NCBI RefSeq assembly: GCF_031180885.1
Contig: NZ_JAPSLK010000035.1
Location: 1 to 64,000, forward strand
DNA: 64,000 bases
Source: Saccharothrix sp.
Lineage (GTDB): Bacteria; Actinomycetota; Actinomycetes; Mycobacteriales; Pseudonocardiaceae
Reading direction: 5' to 3'
The notes under the pieces: generated by a model
The model's database searches: none
What the model was told of the DNA's origin: nothing
What the model saw: the letters and a program-made list of their open reading frames with translations, nothing else
Part shown: one piece after another, positions 6,671 to 62,161 of the stretch
Position numbering within the stretch: the stretch's first letter is position 1
Layout: every line of letters starts with the position of its first letter
Program-made: the position numbers and the translations under genes

Positions 6671-8149
6671 ATGACGCGGAGCTTCGACAACCCGGTGGTC
6701 CCGGGGTTCTTCCCGGACCCCAGCGTCTGCCGGGTCGGCGACGACTACTACCTGGTGTGCTCCAGTTTCGAGTACTTCCCGGGCGTGCCGATCCTGCACA
6801 GCCGGGACCTGGTGCACTGGCGGCAGATCGGCAACGTCCTGGACCGGCCGTCCCAACTGCCGATGCCGGCCGAGGCGCTGGCCTCGCGCGGCATCTACGC
6901 GCCGACGATCCGGTACCACGACGGCCTGTTCTACATGATCACCACCAACGTCTCGGAGGGCGGCAACTTCGTCGTCACCGCGGAGGACCCGGCCGGCCCG
7001 TGGTCGGACCCGGTGTGGATCGACCTGCCCGGCATCGACCCGAGCCTGGTCTGGGACGAGGACGGCAACTGCTGGTGCACCGTGCACGGCGTCCAGCTCG
7101 CGCGGGTGGACCCGTTGGCGGGCAAGGTGTTGGAGGGTCCGTGGCCGATCTGGTCGGGCACCGGTCTGCAATGGCCGGAGGCGCCGCACCTGTACCAGAT
7201 CGGCGACTGGTGGTACCTGATGATCGCCGAGGGCGGCACCGAACGCGGCCACACCGTGGCCATGGCCCGCGCCCGCCACCCGCGCGGCCCCTACGAACCC
7301 GCGCCCGGCAACCCGATCCTCACCCACCGCGGCACCGACCGTCCCATCCAGAGCACCGGTCACGCGGACCTGGTGTCCACTCCGGACGGTGAGTGGTGGA
7401 TGGTCCTCCTGGCCACCCGCCCGCGTGGCTTCACCCCGAACTACCACCCGCTGGGCCGGGAAACGTTCCTCACCCCGGTCGAGTGGGTCGACGGCTGGCC
7501 CCGGGTCGGCCCGGTCGAACTCACCGAGCGCGCCCCGAACGCGTGGCACCCGTTCGACCCGCCACCCGTCCGCGACGACTTCACCGGGCCGGCGCTCGGC
7601 TTCGAGTGGATCTCCCCGCGCGTCCGCCCCGACGAGTCGTGGTCGCTGACCGAACGCCCGGGCTGGCTCACCCTGCACGCCACCGGCCCGACCCTCGACG
7701 AACCCGGCCACACCTTCATCGGCCGCCGCCAGCAGCACCAGGAGTCGCACTCGGAAGTGTTGCTGGACCCCGGTTCGGCGCGGGCAGGCCTGTCGGTGCG
7801 CTTGGACGAGGCCCACCACTACGACCTCGAAGTGGCCGGAGGCCGCGCCGAGGTCATCGCCCGCATCGGCCCGCTGCGCCACACCGTGGCGGCGACAGAG
7901 GTGCCCGACGGCCCGGTGACCCTGACCGTCACGACCCGCCTGCCCACGCAAGAGGACGAAGCGACAAGTGGTGGCAAGGCTTTGGGACCGGACCTGGTCG
8001 GGTTCCACGTCAACGGCACGCTCCTGACCGAACTGGACGGTCGCTACCTGTCCACCGAGGTGGCCTCCGGCTTCACCGGCCGCGTGATCGGCATGTACGT
8101 CACCGAGGGCACAGCGTCCTTCGACTGGTTCGACTACCGCCAACGCTAG
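6671..8149 (+). CDS. GH43 beta-xylosidase/alpha-L-arabinofuranosidase, cytoplasmic
   Basis: A 492-residue GH43 enzyme without a signal peptide, beginning MTRSFDNPVVPGFFPDPSVC. The five-bladed propeller motifs are clear: PDPSV (catalytic base Asp), IDPSLVWDEDG (pKa-tuning Asp), and WPEAPHLY (acid Glu). The C-terminal half from about residue 300 (VRDDFTGPALGFEWISPR) is the beta-sandwich accessory domain of the GH43 subfamily 11/12 beta-xylosidases. It ends the importer operon 15 nt after the permease, so it most likely hydrolyses imported xylo- or arabinoxylo-oligosaccharides to monosaccharides. Xylosidase versus arabinofuranosidase cannot be decided from sequence alone. Confidence 0.9.
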   Translation: MTRSFDNPVVPGFFPDPSVCRVGDDYYLVCSSFEYFPGVPILHSRDLVHWRQIGNVLDRPSQLPMPAEALASRGIYAPTIRYHDGLFYMITTNVSEGGNFVVTAEDPAGPWSDPVWIDLPGIDPSLVWDEDGNCWCTVHGVQLARVDPLAGKVLEGPWPIWSGTGLQWPEAPHLYQIGDWWYLMIAEGGTERGHTVAMARARHPRGPYEPAPGNPILTHRGTDRPIQSTGHADLVSTPDGEWWMVLLATRPRGFTPNYHPLGRETFLTPVEWVDGWPRVGPVELTERAPNAWHPFDPPPVRDDFTGPALGFEWISPRVRPDESWSLTERPGWLTLHATGPTLDEPGHTFIGRRQQHQESHSEVLLDPGSARAGLSVRLDEAHHYDLEVAGGRAEVIARIGPLRHTVAATEVPDGPVTLTVTTRLPTQEDEATSGGKALGPDLVGFHVNGTLLTELDGRYLSTEVASGFTGRVIGMYVTEGTASFDWFDYRQR

Positions 8150-8247
8150 CTCGCATTCCAAAGGTGAGGTGACCACCCGTTTTCCGCCGCGCAGCGGCGC
8201 TCTTCCGCCGCCTCCGCGCGGCGGGCCGGGCTCCCAGCCACAGGTGG

Positions 8248-8402
8248 GGCTTCGGTTCCCCCACCGTATGGCCTGCCCGAAGGGCTACCACAGATTTCCC
8301 GGGTGCAGCCAAAAAGTTTTGCGAGGAACGAGCAAAAGTTTTCAGCGGCACCCGGGAAATCTGTGGTTGGCTTTGCCAGGCCATGCGGTGGGAACCGACG
8401 CC
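8248..8402. repeat. Hairpin element A (155 bp inverted repeat)
   Basis: The outer arms GTATGGCCTG and CAGGCCATGC (with matching CGGTTCCC flanks) and the inner arms CCACAGATTTCCCGGGTG and CACCCGGGAAATCTGTGG enclose a core containing TTTTGCGAGGAACGAGCAAAA. Each arm also contains its own small hairpin: GCCCGAAGGGC at 8275-8285 and TGGCTTTGCCA at 8368-8378. The fold is therefore a four-way junction with a long apical stem. The function is unknown. Confidence 0.85.
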
Positions 8403-8639
8403 CTTCCCTCCCCCATTGGCGGCCTCCAGGCCGCTTTTCGCTTGAGAGCGCGCAGCGCGTCGAGCTTGCGAGCGCGTCAGCGCGTTCAAGAGCGCGAAGC
8501 GCGTTCCTCCTCCAGTAGCGCGGAGCGCGTTGCGTCTACACGCGCGCAGCGTGGGCTTGAGCGCGTAAGCCAATTTCAAAGATTAAAAGCGCCTCGCCGG
8601 CGGGCGAGCCGCCAAGGATGGCACAACTACAACTGCGGG

Positions 8640-8806
8640 GGCTTCTTGCTTGTGTCATCCCCGCATGACCCGGCAAAGCCGACCACATTTTTGGTCGGAT
8701 GCCGCTAAAAATTTTGCTCGTTCCTCACAAAATTTTCGGCTGCGCCCGACCAAAAATGTGGTAGCCCTTCGGGCGGGCCATACGGGGATGACACAAGCAA
8801 GAAGCC
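8640..8806. repeat. Hairpin element B (167 bp inverted repeat)
   Basis: It has the same architecture as element A but a different stem sequence. The outer arms are GGCTTCTTGCTTGTGTCATC and its complement; the inner arms are CCACATTTTTGGTCGG and CCGACCAAAAATGTGG. The core CTCGTTCCTC is in the opposite orientation to element A. The side hairpins GGCAAAGCC and GCCCTTCGGGC are kept. Confidence 0.85.
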
Positions 8807-8889
8807 CAGGTTGAGGTGTGTCCGCTCGGGCGGACTGCCCGCCCGGCAAGGCGGACTGCCTCGCTTGGTTGCGGAGGAGACTCGGTTGT

Positions 8890-8969
8890 TCGAATTGGTT
8901 CGAAGGCCGGCATCGCTAGTTATTCGACGGTGTCGCGCGTAGGCTGACTGCCTGATCGAACCGGTTCGA
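8890..8969. promoter_or_regulatory. Two LacI-type operators TCGAATTGGTTCGA and TCGAACCGGTTCGA
   Basis: TCGAATTGGTTCGA at 8890-8903 and the perfect palindrome TCGAACCGGTTCGA at 8956-8969 precede the CE1-CBM13 esterase gene. The same box flanks the GH54 gene, the LacI regulator/ABC operon at 31783/31937 and the glycosidase at 33451. They are probable binding sites of the LacI protein at 31937-32947. Confidence 0.75.
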
Positions 8970-52822: not shown

Positions 52823-54163
52823 ATGTCGAGGCACAGACTCTTCGGGCCGGCATCGGCCGCCGTGCTCCTGGTCGGGGCGCTGGTCGCCACGGCGGTCGTC
52901 GCCGGCGTCAGCCAGGCCACCTCGTCCACCTCGTCCACGTCGGTCGGCACGCTGGCGGCCAGCGCCGGCTGCGGCAAGGCGCCGACCCTGCGCAGCGGGA
53001 CGCACACGATCACCACCAGCGGCAAGAGCCGCCAGTTCGTGCTGCGCGTCCCCGACGGTTACGACAACACCCGGCAGTACCGGCTGATCTTCGGCTTCCA
53101 CTGGCGCGGCGGCAGCATGAACGACGTCGCCACGGGTGGCAGCAGCGGCGCGGCCTGGGCGTACTACGGGATGCAGGAGCAGTCGAACAACAGCGCGATC
53201 CTCGTGTCGCCACAGGGCTTCAACGCCGGCTGGGCGAACTCGGGCGGCGAGGACGTCACGTTCGTCGACGACATCATCCGGCGCGTCGAGAGCGACCTGT
53301 GCGTGGACACCAGGCTGCGGTTCGCGATGGGCTTCAGCTACGGCGGCGGCATGAGCTACGCGCTGGCGTGCGCGAGGGCGACGGTGTTCCGCGCGGTCGT
53401 GGTGTACGCGGGCGCGCAGCTGAGCGGGTGCGCCGGCGGGACCCAGCCGATCGCGTACTTCGGCATCCACGGCATCTCGGACAACGTCCTGAACATCTCC
53501 CTGGGCCGTGGCCTGCGCGACACGTTCGTCCGCAACAACGGCTGCGCCGCGCAGAGCCCCCGCGAACCCGGCGTGGGCAGCCGGACGCACATCACCACGA
53601 CGTACTCGTGCCGGGCGGGCTACCCGGTCCAGTGGGCGGCCTTCGACGGTGGCCACGCCCCGGCCCCGGTGGAGGGCTGCGGCTGCGACGACGGCGCCCG
53701 GACGTGGACCAAGACCGAGGCGTGGCGGTTCATCTCCCAGTTCCAGGGCGACACCCCGCCCACGAGCACCACCACGACCTCCACCACGACCACGACGACG
53801 ACCTCCACCACGACCACCACGACGACGACCGGCAACCCGCCCGGTGAGACCTGCCGGGTGACCGACACCGTCAACGCCTGGAACACCGGCCTGACGTCGG
53901 AGATCGTCATCACCAACACCGGCAGCACGCCGATCAGCGGCTGGTCCCTGGTCTTCACCCTGCCGGGCGGCCAGACGATCACCAGCGGCTGGAACGCGAC
54001 CTACTCGCCCAACTCCGGCCAGGTGACGGCGCGGAACGTCGGGTACAACGCCGACATCGCACCGAACGCGTCGGTGAGCATCGGCTTCCAGGCAACCCAC
54101 ACCGGCAACACAGCCGAGCCGACCACGTTTACCCTCAACGGCGCCAACTGCACAGTGGCCTGA
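52823..54163 (+). CDS. Secreted CE1 feruloyl-esterase-like protein with Thr linker and CBM2
   Basis: A 446-residue secreted protein, signal anchor MSRHRLFGPASAAVLLVGAL. The esterase domain starts CGKAPTLRSGTHT. It has FGFHWRGGSMND, GMQEQSNNSAILVSPQGFNAGWANSGGEDVTF, elbow GFSYGGGMS and His motif FDGGHAPAPVEGC. A Thr-rich linker of about 25 residues and a CBM2 (CRVTDTVNAWNTGLTSEIVITNTG) follow. It shares its catalytic domain with 41378-42709 and its CBM2 design with 43190-44530. It lies 95 nt after GH62 and may be co-transcribed. Confidence 0.92.
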   Translation: MSRHRLFGPASAAVLLVGALVATAVVAGVSQATSSTSSTSVGTLAASAGCGKAPTLRSGTHTITTSGKSRQFVLRVPDGYDNTRQYRLIFGFHWRGGSMNDVATGGSSGAAWAYYGMQEQSNNSAILVSPQGFNAGWANSGGEDVTFVDDIIRRVESDLCVDTRLRFAMGFSYGGGMSYALACARATVFRAVVVYAGAQLSGCAGGTQPIAYFGIHGISDNVLNISLGRGLRDTFVRNNGCAAQSPREPGVGSRTHITTTYSCRAGYPVQWAAFDGGHAPAPVEGCGCDDGARTWTKTEAWRFISQFQGDTPPTSTTTTSTTTTTTTSTTTTTTTTGNPPGETCRVTDTVNAWNTGLTSEIVITNTGSTPISGWSLVFTLPGGQTITSGWNATYSPNSGQVTARNVGYNADIAPNASVSIGFQATHTGNTAEPTTFTLNGANCTVA

Positions 54164-54320
54164 CCAGGACGCTTCGCGCGAGGGGTGGCGGACGCCGCCC
54201 TTCGCGCGAAGCGCTGCTCGTCGCTTTCGGCGCGCAGCGCGTGCTTCAGGCGCGCAGCGCCCTTGTTCTTCGGCGCGCAGCGCCGTCGGGCAGTGCCGCC
54301 GGGGCACACACCTCAACCCG

Positions 54321-54725
54321 GGCTTCTTGCTTGTGTCATCCCCGTATGGCCCGCCCGAAGGGCTACCACAGATTTCCCGGGTGCAGCCGAAAAGTTTTGC
54401 GAGGAACGAGCAAAAGTTTTTAGCGGCACCCGGGAAATCTGTGGTCGGCTTTGCCGGGTCATGCGGCAATGCCGCTAACTTAAGGTTTCGGCTGGTCAGA
54501 GCCCGCTTCTTGGGTGCTCCGGGCCCTGTGCGGGCCCGTAGCAGTGTCCACTTAGGACGCATGGGGGCCACGCTGGCGCAAAGTCCCTGGTCGAGTCTCG
54601 CGCCGACTGGCATCACCCTCAGGAAGTTGATCAATCTGAACTTGATCTGAATCAGCGCTGACGTGCGAAGATCATCCTTAAGTTAGCGGCATTGGGTCAT
54701 GCGGGGATGACACAAGCAAGAAGCC
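54321..54725. repeat. Hairpin element C, split by a 228 bp insertion
   Basis: Left part 54321-54466 and right part 54695-54725 rejoin into a 167 bp element when the insertion and one 10 bp duplication are removed, exactly the length of element B. The outer arms match B (GGCTTCTTGCTTGTGTCATC); the inner arms match A (CCACAGATTTCCCGGGTG). The core TTTTGCGAGGAACGAGCAAAA is present. Confidence 0.88.
54467..54694. mobile_element. MITE-like non-autonomous insertion with 19 bp perfect ends and 10 bp target duplication
   Basis: The left end CAATGCCGCTAACTTAAGG (54467-54485) is the exact complement of the right end (54676-54694). The host sequence GGTCATGCGG occurs immediately on both sides (54457-54466 and 54695-54704). 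The 190 bp interior encodes no transposase. The end sequence and a 10 bp target duplication suit mobilisation by an IS4-family transposase encoded elsewhere. Confidence 0.92.
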
Positions 54726-54994
54726 CCCGCAGTTGTAGTTGTGTCATCCTTGGCGGCTCGCCCGCCGGCGAGGCTCTTTCAATCTTTAGACCGGCGCTTC
54801 GCTGCTCAAATCCACGCTTCGCGCGTGGTCACGCAACGCGCTCCGCGCTGCTGGAGGAGGAACGCGCTTCGCGCTCTCGAACGCGCTGACGCGCTCTCGG
54901 GACGTACGCGCTGGCGCGCTCTCAAGATCAAAAGCTTGAAGGATCAAAAGCTACAAGCGGCGCTCGCCGCGCGGCAGGCCCCCGGGGGTGGACG

Positions 54995-55131
54995 GGCGTC
55001 GGTTCGTCCCCCGTACGACCTGCCGGAGGCAACCACCCTTTGGTCTTCTCCGCAACCGGAAAAGCTGGTTGCGGAGAAGACCAAAGCGCGGTTGGGCTGC
55101 GCCCAGGCCGTACGGGGGACGAACCGAGGCC
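54995..55131. repeat. Hairpin element E (137 bp inverted repeat, different core)
   Basis: Its outer arms GGCGTCGGTTCGTCCCCCGT and the matching ACGGGGGACGAACCGAGGCC resemble those of elements A and D. The apical stem is CTTTGGTCTTCTCCGCAACC paired with its exact complement around GGAAAAGCT, lacking the TTTTGCGAGGAACG core. Confidence 0.82.
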
Positions 55132-55360
55132 CTTCCTGTGGCTTGGCAAGCCCGACCAAAAGCAGCGCCAGCGGCGCAAAAGCAGCGGCTTCGCCGCAAT
55201 GGAGTCGGCTTTGCCGTAGAGGAGTCGGCTTCGCCGTAAAAGCGCGCGGCCGGTTGCGTTGGTGGTGCGGTGTGCCTGCGGGTGGCGGCCAGTGATGGGA
55301 GGGGTGGTGTGGGCGGCTGGTGATCGAGGCGGGTGTGGGTGGTCGGGGAGTGGTGGGTGG

Positions 55361-56137
55361 TCAGGGGTCGGGGGTGGCGGGTCGGTCCAAGCGGGTCGGG
55401 TCGCCGGAGTTGTCCCGCCGAACCAGCCAGGCCTCGGTGATGTGCGTGAACATGGCCTCGGCTGCCCCCGTCGGGTCCTGGGCCGCGATCCGCTCGTACA
55501 CCGCCCGGTGCCCCATGTTGGACGCCACGCACAGCGCGCGTTCACTCCGACCGGTGTACCGGGCCGTGTTGATCACCTGACCCTCCAACGCCCGCACCAC
55601 ACCACGCGCGATCCGGTTCCCCGACGCCTGCATGACCGTGTCGTGGAACGCCCGGTCCTGCTCCCGGTAAGCCACCGGGTCGTCCACCAGCTCGTCCATG
55701 CGCTCCACCAACATCCGCAGCCGCTCGACGGTCTCCTCGTCCGCGGTGCGAGCGGCCACGGCGGCCATGTCGGACTCCAACAGCCGCCTCGTCACCACGA
55801 CGTCGTCCAGCACCGCCAGGCTGTCGTCCTGCGCGATGGTGGCGGCCAGGACGAGTTCGTCGAGCAGGTTCCACAACGCCGGCGGTGTCACCGTGGTGCC
55901 GGACCCCTGGCGGACCTGCACCAAGCCCTTCTCCTGCAACACCTTCACCGACTCGCGGACCACCGTCCGGCTCACCGAGAACGTCTCGCACAGCACCGGT
56001 TCCGGCGGCAGCGCGGTCCCGGAGGGGTAGACGCCGCGCACGATGCGCTCCACGAGTTCGGCCGTGACGGCCTTGGCCAGGCTGGCCGGGCGGCGAGCCC
56101 AACTCGGGGCGCTCGGGGCGTCGTCGGTCGCCGTCAT
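55361..56137 (-). CDS. FadR/GntR-family transcriptional regulator
   Basis: A 258-residue regulator. The GntR winged helix lies at about residues 20-85 (AVTAELVERIVRGVYPSGTALPPEPVLCETFSVSRTVVRESVKVLQEKGLVQVRQGSGTTV). The FCD/FadR-C effector domain follows with metal-ligand-like positions in EQDRAFHDTVMQASGN and RAVYERIAAQDP. Start at 56137; upstream in-frame codons lie within the operator region. It diverges from an ABC importer, and the shared promoter carries an ACGTAAGACGTCATACG site. Such regulators often sense sugar acids. Confidence 0.88.
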   Translation of the reverse strand: MTATDDAPSAPSWARRPASLAKAVTAELVERIVRGVYPSGTALPPEPVLCETFSVSRTVVRESVKVLQEKGLVQVRQGSGTTVTPPALWNLLDELVLAATIAQDDSLAVLDDVVVTRRLLESDMAAVAARTADEETVERLRMLVERMDELVDDPVAYREQDRAFHDTVMQASGNRIARGVVRALEGQVINTARYTGRSERALCVASNMGHRAVYERIAAQDPTGAAEAMFTHITEAWLVRRDNSGDPTRLDRPATPDP

Positions 56138-59349: not shown

Positions 59350-59803
59350 CCGGCGCTTCGCGCTGCTGGAGGAGGAACGCGCTTCGCGCTCTTCAAACGC
59401 GCTGCGCGCTCTCAAGATCAAACGCGCTGCGCGCTTTCAAGATCACAAGCGCCTCGCCGGCGGGCAGACCACCGATGGGGGAGGGAAGGGCGTCGGTTCC
59501 CCCACCGCATGGCCTGGCAAAGCCAACCACGGATTCCCCGGGTGCCCCTAAAAACTTTTGCTCGTTCCTCGCAAAACTTTTGGCTGCACCCGGGGAATCC
59601 GTGGTAGCCCTTTCGGGCAGGCCATACGGTGGGGGAACCGAAGCCCCGCCGTGGCTGGGAGCCGGCCCGCCGCGCGGAGCGCGGCGAAAGCGCCGGCCGG
59701 TGGGTGGTGGGCGTTGGCCGATGGGGGTGGTGGGCGTTGGCCGTCGCGGTGGACAAAGGGAAGCGGTGCGGAGGCAGGGGGAGGGCCTCCGCACCGCGGG
59801 TCG
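59350..59803. repeat. Repeat-rich intergenic region, locus 5, with hairpin element D
   Basis: Between convergent genes. GAGGAGGAACGCGCTTCGCGCTC-type palindromes (59363-59440) and the AAGCGCCTCGCCGGCGGGC module (about 59448) precede hairpin element D (59489-59645). G-rich GGTGGGCGTTGG direct repeats follow at about 59700-59750. No gene is supported. Confidence 0.8.
59489..59645. repeat. Hairpin element D (157 bp inverted repeat)
   Basis: The outer arms resemble element A; the inner arms are CCACGGATTCCCCGGGTG and CACCCGGGGAATCCGTGG, differing from A by matched changes on both sides. The core CTCGTTCCTCGCAAAA is in the orientation opposite to A and C. The side hairpins TGGCAAAGCCA and GCCCTTTCGGGC are kept. 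Confidence 0.86.
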
Positions 59804-62161
59804 TCACTGGCGCAGGGTCCACTGCTGGTTGCTGCCGCCGTGGCAGGTCCACAGCTGGATCAGGGTGCCGTTCGCGGTCGCGTTGCCGCTGGCGTCCAGG
59901 CACAGGCCCGACTGGGCGCTGGTGATGGTGCCGTTGGCGTTGACGTTCCACTGCTGGTTCGTCCCGCCGTGGCAGTCCCAGATGATCGCGGCCGTGCCGT
60001 TGGTGGTGCCCGCCCCGGAGGCGTCCAGGCACCTGCCGTGGATCATCAGCTGCCGGCCGGACTGGGTCCACCGCTGGTTGGTGCCGCCGTTGCAGTCCCA
60101 CAGCCGGGCCTGGGTGCCGTTGCTGGAACTCGGCACCTCGATGCAGCGGCTCGACTGGCCGCCCACGATCGTCGTGCCCGGCGTGGGGGTGGTGCCGCCC
60201 GGACCGGCGTTGGCCATCACGGTCTGCGCGCCGGAGGGCCAGTTGCCGTTGGTGACGGTGATGTTGCCGGACACCACGTTGCCGCGGTCGCCGTTGGTGA
60301 TGTTGCTGCTGCCGTTGGTGGACCAGTTGTCCCGCAGCGTCCAGTTGCCCATGTTCTCGCCGCCCCAGTAGTTGGCGGTGGCCCAGGTGCCGGTCGCGGA
60401 GAACACGTTGTTGACCGCGCTGTAGTAGCGCGAACCTTCGTCGAAGTAGAGGCCGTAGTAGCCGTTGGTGCGCAGGCAGTAGTTCTGGTTGATCTGCGCG
60501 CCCGGGTTCCACGCGAGGGTGTAGATGCAGCCGCCGTCGTTCATCTGCTGCATGACGTCGTGGATGTAGTTGCCGATGAGCCGGTTGTTCGACGCGGTCG
60601 TGGGGGTGCTGTACCGGGGCTGGTAGTTGTAGAGGCCGCGGTTGGCGTAGTGGTTGCTGCCGCCCGCGTCGTTGCTGCCCCAGCCGTAGCCGATGGACAT
60701 GCCGCTGTAGGGCATGTTGTAGACCTCGTTGTACGACACGGTCGCCGTGCTGACGTAGGTGTTGAGGACCGAGACGTTGCCCCGGTACTCGATGCCCAGG
60801 TCGTGGATGCGGTTCTGGCTGATCGTGATGTCCTTGTTGACCATCCGCTGGTCGCTCGGGTGGTGCGCGTCCGCGCGCACGCCGCCGACGATGACGCCGC
60901 CGGCCGAGCTGTGCGCGATCTCCGACCGGGTCACGGTGATGTTCGCCGCGCCGAGGCCGACGCCGGAGCCGTGCGCGTTGGCGTCGTTGCCGATGCCGAT
61001 CGCGGTCTGGCCCAGGTTGAGGAACCGGGAGTCGGTGAAGGTGACGTTGTTCGCGGCCGAGACCTGCACGGCGGCGGGCATCTGCGCCCAGTGCGGACGG
61101 GTCGCCTCGAACTGGGTGCAGCCGTTCTGGCACGAGGTGAGCCGGTCGGCGGGCCAGTTCCAGTTGCCCGTCATGTACGCGCCGGTCTGCTGGTCGACGA
61201 AGCCCTGGTCGCTGCTGGGGCCGAGCCAGCTGGTGCCGGTGAACGTGATGCCGCTGAACGTGATGTGGTGTGCCGGGGCGTCGTAGGTGCCGCCGACCTG
61301 GACCAGGGACTGGAGCGTCGGGAGTTCCACCTTGGCGGCGTTGACGTCCTGGCCGGCGCGCGGGATGTAGAACAGGTGGCCGGCGGAGGGGCGGACGTAC
61401 CACTCGCCCGGGGAGTCCAGGAACTCGTAGGCGTTGGCCAGGTAGAACGGTCCCGCGCGGTGCGGGCTGGTCAGGGTGTCGTAGCCGAACGTGTTGTTGT
61501 TCCACGCGGGCTGCTTCATGGTGAGGAAGTTCCCGCTGATGCTCTGCACGGGGGAGTAGCGGTCGGTGAAGGAGTTGACGCTCTCCACCTCGACGCGGCC
61601 CTGGTCGGCCAGGTTGTTGAGGTAGTTGAGGGCGGTGTTGGAGAACCGCATCCCGTTGGTGGCGAAGGAGAAGTCGGACCGGTTGACCTGGGTGCGGGCG
61701 CGGGTGGCGATCGTGCCGTCCACGTAGAGCTGGCGCGAGTCGAGCCCGGTCGGGACGGACGCCCGCCAGATGTTGCGGCCGGCGTCGACCTGCGTCCACC
61801 CGGTGACCGCCCGGGCGCCGCTGAGAACCGGCCGGGCGGAAGGTGCGGCCTGCCACACGACGCGGTAGCCGTTGCGGCCGGAGTCCGCGTCGGTCAGCCG
61901 GAGCGGTTGGGAGAGCCGGTACACACCGTCGGCCAGCTGGACCACGATGTCACCGGACATGGTCGGGGCCTGCGAACGAACAGCGGCCTGGGCGGCGGAC
62001 AGCGAACAGGGCTGCGTTTGTGAGCAGCTCGTGCCGGTGCCGGTGGGGGAGGCGTAGAGCGTCGTGGTGGCCGCGGAGGCGGTGGGCGGCGACGTCACCA
62101 GCCCGGCGGCCAACGCCGCCAGCACGACGACCGCCCTTCGGATCGGGGTGGATGGGGACAA
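59804..62161 (-). CDS. Secreted right-handed parallel beta-helix protein with CBM13
   Basis: A 785-residue secreted protein. TTG at 62161 is proposed as start, with GAGGAGGG 4-6 nt upstream, giving LSPSTPIRRAVVVLAALAAG as signal peptide. The catalytic-type region (about 35-650) starts TTTLYASPTGTGTSCSQTQPCSL and includes GVYRLSQPLRLTDADSGRNGYRVVW. It then has many PbH1 coils (IAHSSAGGVIVGG, DITISQNRIHDLGIEYRGN, NEVYNMPYSGMSIGYGWG, NGYYGLYFDEGSRYYSAVNNVF). The sequence is like the parallel-helix glycosidases or lyases acting on xylan or pectin (GH141-type among candidates). A ricin domain (RCIEVPSSS, RCLDASGAG, GLCLDASGN) ends it. The exact activity is not assigned. Confidence 0.85.
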   Translation of the reverse strand: MSPSTPIRRAVVVLAALAAGLVTSPPTASAATTTLYASPTGTGTSCSQTQPCSLSAAQAAVRSQAPTMSGDIVVQLADGVYRLSQPLRLTDADSGRNGYRVVWQAAPSARPVLSGARAVTGWTQVDAGRNIWRASVPTGLDSRQLYVDGTIATRARTQVNRSDFSFATNGMRFSNTALNYLNNLADQGRVEVESVNSFTDRYSPVQSISGNFLTMKQPAWNNNTFGYDTLTSPHRAGPFYLANAYEFLDSPGEWYVRPSAGHLFYIPRAGQDVNAAKVELPTLQSLVQVGGTYDAPAHHITFSGITFTGTSWLGPSSDQGFVDQQTGAYMTGNWNWPADRLTSCQNGCTQFEATRPHWAQMPAAVQVSAANNVTFTDSRFLNLGQTAIGIGNDANAHGSGVGLGAANITVTRSEIAHSSAGGVIVGGVRADAHHPSDQRMVNKDITISQNRIHDLGIEYRGNVSVLNTYVSTATVSYNEVYNMPYSGMSIGYGWGSNDAGGSNHYANRGLYNYQPRYSTPTTASNNRLIGNYIHDVMQQMNDGGCIYTLAWNPGAQINQNYCLRTNGYYGLYFDEGSRYYSAVNNVFSATGTWATANYWGGENMGNWTLRDNWSTNGSSNITNGDRGNVVSGNITVTNGNWPSGAQTVMANAGPGGTTPTPGTTIVGGQSSRCIEVPSSSNGTQARLWDCNGGTNQRWTQSGRQLMIHGRCLDASGAGTTNGTAAIIWDCHGGTNQQWNVNANGTITSAQSGLCLDASGNATANGTLIQLWTCHGGSNQQWTLRQ

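What the first reader, a model, noticed from the sequence alone, without database searches (positions are those of the whole stretch)
8248..8402. Hairpin elements A-E: arms vary between copies while staying perfectly paired
Five 137-167 bp elements (8248, 8640, 54321, 54995, 59489) share a layout: outer arms, two small side hairpins (GCCCGAAGGGC and GGCAAAGCC), an inner stem of 16-20 bp, and in four of five a core TTTTGCGAGGAACGAGCAAAA. The inner stems have different sequences (CCACAGATTTCCCGGGTG, CCACATTTTTGGTCGG, CCACGGATTCCCCGGGTG, CTTTGGTCTTCTCCGCAACC), yet each pairs perfectly with its own other arm. Matched changes on both sides imply selection on structure, or copying by hairpin correction. 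The four-way-junction shape suits a structured RNA, a folded single-stranded DNA intermediate, or a nucleoid/terminator element. I know of no described family with this design.
Basis: partly seen in the sequence, partly recalled or inferred. Interest (0 to 1): 0.78.

Follow-up and report, generated by a model that had tools for sequence, protein, structure and literature searches.

The report
Mobile hairpins behind actinomycete genes
The window holds five copies of a large repeated hairpin that has spread to the ends of many genes in one group of actinomycete bacteria; it resembles known small bacterial repeats but is bigger, lacks their usual mobilising enzyme, and swaps whole stem sequences while both arms stay matched.

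Summary
A to E are near-perfect 141-172 nt palindromes. They belong to a family of about 85 places in this genome and to related elements in 14 of 118 other genomes searched. Inner stems differ between subfamilies but stay paired: in 11 clusters, 66 column classes keep pairing through changes on both sides, 2 break it. None lies inside a called gene; most sit behind a stop codon with a preferred, not fixed, orientation to that gene (44 of 62 in this genome), among small hairpins followed by T runs on the gene's sense strand. One-sided changes on that strand make G.U rather than A.C pairs (62 v 25). At two conserved junctions 2 of 18 genomes have elements, so the family has spread. Best reading: a new REP/BIME-like mobile family acting in RNA at gene 3' ends, with arms perhaps also matched by template switching. 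No Y1/RAYT transposase is found in this genome, so it is not a classical RAYT-driven REP. Unexpectedly, the 21-nt core recurs in Bacteroidota (including Flavo-1 RNA), Clostridia, Gracilibacteria and one archaeal contig.

The parts
8248..8404 (+). Element A: type II outer arms, inner stem CCACAGATTTCCCGGGTG, core on + strand; 98 nt behind the stop of the GH43-type gene 6671-8149
8637..8808 (-). Element B: type I outer arms, inner stem CCACATTTTTGGTCGG, core variant TTTTGTGAGG on - strand
54319..54466 (+). Element C, first part: type I outer arm, inner stem CCACAGATTTCCCGGGTG, core on + strand; behind the CBM2 gene 52862-54163
54467..54694 (.). 228-bp MITE-like insertion inside element C, with 19-bp inverted ends (CAATGCCGCTAACTTAAGG) and 10-bp target duplication GGTCATGCGG (54457-54466 and 54695-54704)
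54695..54726 (+). Element C, last part: duplicated target and 3' outer arm
54992..55132 (-). Element D: other subfamily, no core, inner stem CTTTGGTCTTCTCCGCAACC; read here on the - strand because the nearby gene 55361-56137 (GntR/FCD type) is on - and the G.U asymmetry of its cluster fits that strand
59489..59645 (-). Element E: type II outer arms, inner stem CCACGGATTCCCCGGGTG, core on - strand; behind the ricin-lectin gene 59804-62125 (-)
8150..8247 (+). Stretch between stop codon and element A with small hairpins and one T4 run; genome-wide such stretches carry T4 runs on the sense strand only (64 v 0 in 51)
8405..8636 (.). Spacer between the opposed elements A and B, full of short GCGC-type repeats

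Best explanation
A REP/BIME-like family of non-autonomous mobile palindromes that lives behind genes. SHOWN: many copies at unrelated intergenic places; at two conserved junctions present in two close genomes and absent in 16 others; preferred orientation to the upstream gene; in the two core-bearing genomes, hairpin-plus-T-run repeats around it on the sense strand; arms kept paired through two-sided changes; one-sided changes biased to G.U on the sense strand. INFERRED: the element is transcribed with its gene and works as RNA, most likely as part of a terminator island or as a 3'-end barrier that stabilises the message; where both genes of a convergent pair have a copy, the pair would also separate the two transcripts. 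INFERRED, weaker: a stem changed on both arms comes from replacement by another copy or from template switching inside the hairpin, with selection removing broken arms. UNKNOWN: the enzyme that spreads it.
For: Copies: 143 CM matches on either strand, about 85 places, in 9.46 Mb. Spread: anchor motif behind sdhB in 2 of 18 and behind ilvE in 2 of 18 genus genomes, the same two, G000 and G016 (sequences). At ilvE the inner block differs between the two genomes on both arms (ATTTTTGGTCGGGTGC v ATTTTCCAGGGGTTGC), each pairing with its own partner. Context: no element inside a called gene; of elements with a called upstream gene, that gene is in sense for 44 of 62 (G000; 34 of these within 200 nt), 24 of 29 (G016), 9 of 13 (G010), 8 of 13 (G006), 28 of 43 (G015, some counted twice); D elements of G000 the other way round, 12 of 13. 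T runs: 64 T4 v 0 A4 runs in 51 stop-to-element stretches of G000; hairpin+T units 29 sense, 0 antisense, 0.3 in shuffles; G016 13 v 1. Terminator-like hairpins in 28 of 113 stretches v mean 5.45, maximum 12, in 20 shuffles. Pairing. Strand asymmetry (150 elements in 11 clusters, D of G000 reversed): C>T 32 v G>A 13, A>G 30 v T>C 12, G.U-making 62 v A.C-making 25, p 9e-5; without the D cluster 51 v 22, p 0.0009. In unpaired columns A>G is rarer than T>C (11 v 27, not corrected for base content), so the A>G excess goes with pairing.
Against: At sdhB an ordinary-looking terminator lies between stop codon and element in both carriers (read by eye), so the element may sit behind the point where transcription ends. 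No small hairpin+T units in front of elements of G015 (26 stretches) or G006 (8). Three in ten M elements have an antisense gene upstream (48 of 162 over six genomes). D elements of G021 do not show the reversed context of G000's. In unpaired columns C>T also exceeds G>A (33 v 7), so part of the asymmetry could be mutational; and I reversed D after seeing its asymmetry, although gene context says so independently. One-sided changes that break pairs by transversion are as frequent as G.U ones (68 v 54 column classes). No RNA data were available.
Confidence: 0.55

Rival explanations
1. Selfish palindromes without RNA function. Arms stay matched because replication copies one arm from the other (template switching / quasipalindrome correction); the place behind genes reflects target preference for, or tolerance at, terminators.
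For: Whole blocks of stem differ on both arms at one orthologous site and between subfamilies; template switching can make multi-base compensatory changes (PMC8794818, abstract and one section read). Core flipped relative to the arms in L024, as spacer inversion would give. Terminator upstream of the element at sdhB.
Against: One-sided states favour G.U on the sense strand 62 v 25, including A>G 30 v T>C 12, which plain correction does not predict. Orientation to the gene is biased.
Confidence: 0.27
2. A DNA-level site: cruciform or folded single strand bound by a nucleoid protein, gyrase or a recombinase, with transcription irrelevant.
For: Long perfect arms could extrude; E. coli REPs are reported gyrase targets (PMC3733652, discussion part 1 read). 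Several contigs of this draft genome end in or near an element.
Against: Orientation bias and G.U asymmetry; no Y1 transposase found in this genome. Contig ends at repeats are most simply an assembly effect.
Confidence: 0.08
3. A trans-acting or regulatory structured RNA like Flavo-1, with the apical core as the recognised part.
For: Exact core shared with Flavo-1 RNAs; core (one wobble allowed) at 66 places of this genome.
Against: Relatives outside G000 and G016 whose elements were read have no such core; about 85 copies behind unrelated genes look like a repeat, not an RNA gene.
Confidence: 0.07

Closest known systems
REP / BIME / REPIN repeats (GTAG-tagged superfamily, RAYT-associated)
   Same: High-copy intergenic palindromes, mostly behind genes and between convergent or unidirectional genes, frequent opposed pairs, G-T pairs in stems taken as a sign of RNA function (PMC3733652: abstract, results parts 1-3 of 4, discussion part 1 read); here GTAG precedes the left side hairpin, read outward, in 117 of 154 M elements.
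   Different: Published REPs are 20-40 bp; GTAG ones were listed in Proteobacteria, Cyanobacteria, Chloroflexi and the PVC group. Here 141-172 nt in Actinomycetota, right tag GTAG in only 15 of 154, and no PF01797 in G000 or in carriers G006, G009, G010, G015, G016, G017, G074; carriers G018, G019, G021, G023, G026, G034, G050 were not searched for it.
CGTC-tagged REPs
   Same: Found in several phyla; no dedicated transposase known (PMC3733652). 11 of the 12 printed Oscillospiraceae copies of the shared core have CGTC next to the hairpin on the other strand.
   Different: No CGTC beside the core in this genome's printed elements.
Flavo-1 RNA (RF01705)
   Same: Its matches in L071 and L074 contain the same TTTTGYGAGGAACGAGCAAAA hairpin.
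   Different: Outside this genome the core is mostly single-copy (19 of 25 genomes); no match of elements A/B to Flavo-1 up to E 10.
Intrinsic terminators and hairpin clusters
   Same: Hairpins in groups close behind stop codons; clusters reported to end transcription (PMC8355165, abstract and section titles read).
   Different: A 60-70 bp stem is far longer than a terminator needs (recalled) and belongs to one dispersed repeat family.
MITEs
   Same: Short, non-coding, dispersed, inverted ends.
   Different: No target duplication or exact border was worked out for the hairpin element itself; the 228-bp insert inside element C does look like a MITE.

Membership tests
GTAG-REP / REPtron | unpaired GTAG tag at one end of the hairpin | tested here: inconclusive
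   left side hairpin GTAG 117 of 154, GTTG 24, GTCG 12, none read 1; right side GTTG 49, GTCG 46, GTGG 43, GTAG 15, none read 1; both GTAG 15 (M elements only)
GTAG-REP / REPtron | cognate RAYT (Y1/HuH) transposase in the genome | tested here: not met
   PF01797: 0 matches in G000 while 6 of 14 control genomes ring; 0 in carriers G006, G009, G010, G015, G016, G017, G074; the 4 of 30 genomes that match are not among the 15 carriers
GTAG-REP / REPtron | 20-40 bp palindrome | tested here: not met
   141-172 nt elements; the side hairpins are smaller than a REP
REP-like repeats in the wide sense (BIME, ERIC, REPIN) | high-copy, intergenic, 3' of genes, convergent and unidirectional gaps | tested here: met
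   about 85 places, none inside a called gene, mostly a sense gene upstream, convergent 26, codirectional 22, divergent 6, unclassed 5 of 59 sites listed, one convergent site listed twice
Flavo-1 RNA RF01705 | match to the covariance model | tested here: not met
   not listed for the window at gathering score nor for 8150-8900 up to E 10
Intrinsic terminator | GC hairpin followed by U tract on the sense strand | tested here: inconclusive
   small hairpins around the element meet it in G000 (29 v 0 before, 39 v 1 behind) and G016, not before elements of G006 and G015; the large hairpin's own 3' arm is not followed by a strong U tract in types I and II (read by eye)
Intrinsic terminator | transcript ends mapped at the hairpin | not testable with these tools
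   no RNA data
MITE | target duplication at the insertion | not tested
   carrier and empty junctions were compared, but flanks are too diverged to read a border by eye

The most novel reading that the evidence does not exclude
TTTTGYGAGGAACGAGCAAAA is a portable hairpin cap recognised by a factor common to many bacteria and some archaea. It has been taken up independently at the apex of unrelated repeat RNAs: Flavo-1 and another flavobacterial element, Oscillospiraceae repeats, Gracilibacteria and Pacearchaeota repeats, virus-derived contigs and, among the Actinomycetota seen here, only this genome and its close relative G016. In this host the capped hairpins form a family whose whole stems are rewritten on both arms by template switching, which would make it a natural test bed for that mechanism.
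Probability: 0.2. Interest if true: 0.78.

Novelty: new variant of a known kind. Interest (0 to 1): 0.56.

Why it matters
The best-studied REPs (GTAG type) are tied to RAYT transposases and are commonest in Proteobacteria. A large, fast-evolving family in actinomycetes with no such enzyme found points to another way of spreading, and its many copies with swapped but matched stems allow a direct test of whether selection on RNA or copying inside the hairpin keeps stems paired. The core shared with Flavo-1 gives that orphan RNA a multi-copy relative to work with.

Tried and rejected
RAYT mobilisation: rejected for the present genome. Mobilising gene beside single-copy elements: the called neighbours in G017, G018, G019, G034 and G026 showed none obviously a transposase (read by eye). 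Rfam identity: none. Plasmid and phage carriage: window 8210-8440 had no match in PLSDB or INPHARED. A first strand count (G.U 622, A.C 273 cells) pointed the same way but was spoiled by misaligned side hairpins and is not used; replace it. Clustering the 72 foreign cores by flanks chained 69 into one group and is not used; in the same call the core hairpin was in the MFE of only 40 of those 69 when folded with 50 nt on each side. That the foreign cores are of several kinds rests on reading. Papers: six 11-13-base strings of the core gave 13 papers, 12 listed, none relevant by title; 0 for the phrase Flavo-1 RNA; nothing on actinomycete REP-like families seen in the listings (8; 10 of 42; 4). 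PMC2817692 and PMC2864571: passages only. PMC8266576: abstract only.

Counting caveats: the gene caller is my own codon scorer. The element finder is a motif search; some G015 elements were found twice with starts 5 bases apart, so G015 counts are inflated. Searches dropped elements under 103 nt (among them those of G021 and G019), and searches also dropped clusters under 4 (150 of 171 kept). A1 was chosen by the core, so its constancy there is no evidence. The number of places is my count of distinct coordinates. The two junctions were chosen because G000 has elements there. Of 17 G016 loci picked without regard to G000, one (L196) was orthologous to a held G000 site.

Full report
WHAT IS THERE. 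The five elements are real and beyond chance: fold energies lie 12.8 to 20 standard deviations below letter shuffles, and the window has 64 pairs of 14-base inverted repeats (12 regions, five of them these elements) where triplet shuffles give 0-5. The exact core is in A, C and E; B has one change; D has none. Element C is split by a 228-bp insert with a 10-bp duplication.

FAMILY IN THIS GENOME. A covariance model of 31 copies (A1, R1) finds 143 matches on either strand, by my count about 85 places, in the 9.46-Mb genome; 150 of 5244 first-look candidates were scored, so this may be a lower bound. The core with one wobble occurs 66 times and the reversed pattern 0 times in this genome. Outer arms come in at least three types and inner stems in many. 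L015 joins a type I left arm to a type II right arm. Opposed pairs a few hundred bases apart recur.

RELATIVES. Of 119 genomes including the own one, 15 match: 11 of the genus, 3 of other genera of the family (G026 only at E 9e-4), 1 of another family of the order. Their inner stems differ widely yet are nearly perfectly paired in the 27 loci folded, and those outside G016 have another apex instead of the core. None of 295 other genomes drawn from the phylum has the core (one reversed-pattern hit in that draw).

PAIRING. In A1 99.3% of cells pair, nine pairs change on both sides, and no shuffle of 500 reaches this. In 11 clusters of 4 or more copies (150 elements), 66 column classes show two-sided changes that keep Watson-Crick pairing, 1 makes G.U and 2 break it; one-sided classes were 54 G.U, 33 A.C and 68 other. 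Matched change is common, but one-sided states exist.

WHICH STRAND, WHICH LEVEL. Oriented by a fixed anchor, most M elements lie behind a stop codon of a gene on the same strand (114 of 162 with a called upstream gene, over six genomes, G015 inflated); the D elements of G000 lie the opposite way (12 of 13), those of G021 do not. Read on the gene's strand, changes that give G.U outnumber those that give A.C, 62 to 25, by both routes (C>T v G>A 32:13; A>G v T>C 30:12). In unpaired columns C>T also exceeds G>A (33:7) but A>G is rarer than T>C (11:27). I take this as evidence for pairing in RNA of that strand, with the caution that the C>T part may be mutation bias.

SURROUNDINGS. Between stop codon and element in G000 lie small hairpins followed by T runs: 64 T4 against 0 A4 runs in 51 stretches, 29 hairpin+T units in sense, 0 antisense, 0.3 in shuffles; behind the element 39 against 1. 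G016: 13 v 1 and 10 v 0. G006 and G015 have none in front of the element. Gaps are convergent 26, codirectional 22, divergent 6 among 54 classed of 59 listed sites (one convergent site listed twice), against 7, 29 and 7 junctions in the window itself.

SPREAD. Behind sdhB and ilvE the anchor motif is found in G000 and G016 and in none of the other 16 genus genomes; several of those 16 have other inverted repeats there. At ilvE the outer arms are alike in the two genomes, whereas the inner block differs on both arms; at sdhB even the outer arm type differs. Replacement by another copy, repeated insertion and template switching are all possible.

WHAT IT WORKS LIKE, AND WHAT IT IS. It works like the REP/BIME class: palindromes behind genes, probably transcribed, often paired (PMC3733652). 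It is not shown to be a member of the GTAG-REP/RAYT family: size and transposase tests fail, the tag test is mixed. I file it as a REP-like family of a new variety.

THE SHARED CORE. Two of 18 such loci tested reach the Flavo-1 cutoff. In 25 such genomes held, the core is present (by choice) at 1-9 copies, single in 19, and the reversed pattern is absent. Its place near genes in those loci shows no clear orientation. Five IMG/VR stretches hold it; two with identical flanks have it at the tip of a perfect GGGCGTGCC/GGCACGCCC stem. Why an AT-rich cap of such lineages tops a GC-rich actinomycete hairpin is unexplained.

Noticed in passing
window 54467-54694; L011 near 450: A 228-bp MITE-like insert with 19-bp inverted ends sits inside element C with a 10-bp duplication; a sequence with a similar end (CAATGCCGCTAAGTTAGG) begins at the same position of the element in L011, so the hairpin may be its preferred target.
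   Followed up: partly
L261-L268 and L280-L288, behind sdhB and ilvE of other genus members: Several genomes without this family carry other repeats at the same junctions: arrays of GCGAGAGTCCTACGTTC with an inverted AACGCTCAG...CTGAGCGTT part, and a palindrome with GATTTGACATGGG. The gap behind genes seems to host several unrelated repeat families.
   Followed up: no
L306, L307 (IMG/VR): The same core sits at the tip of a perfect GC-rich stem in two virus-derived contigs with identical flanks.
   Followed up: no
L072, L080, L087, L089, L095, L126, L130, L133: Oscillospiraceae genomes carry several copies of a GGTGGA-core-GACGGxTGAGG repeat, with CGTC beside the hairpin on the other strand as in CGTC-REPs.
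   Followed up: partly
L107 and L096, L105, L113, L127: Gracilibacteria and a Pacearchaeota contig share a layout around the core (stem with different arm sequences, e.g. GCTTCTATGAG/CTCATAGAAGC and GGCATTAACAG/CTGTTAATGCC).
   Followed up: no
3' tails of elements, e.g. L012, L013: The stretch behind the 3' outer arm of type I holds a partial third copy of the 5' outer arm (TTGTGTCATCC before TTGGCGGC), so the 3' arm could pair either way.
   Followed up: no
contig ends of the own genome (C4, C10, C26, C45, C73, C104, C118, C122): Contigs that end within a few hundred bases of an element, as expected if these repeats broke the assembly; copy number is probably underestimated.
   Followed up: no
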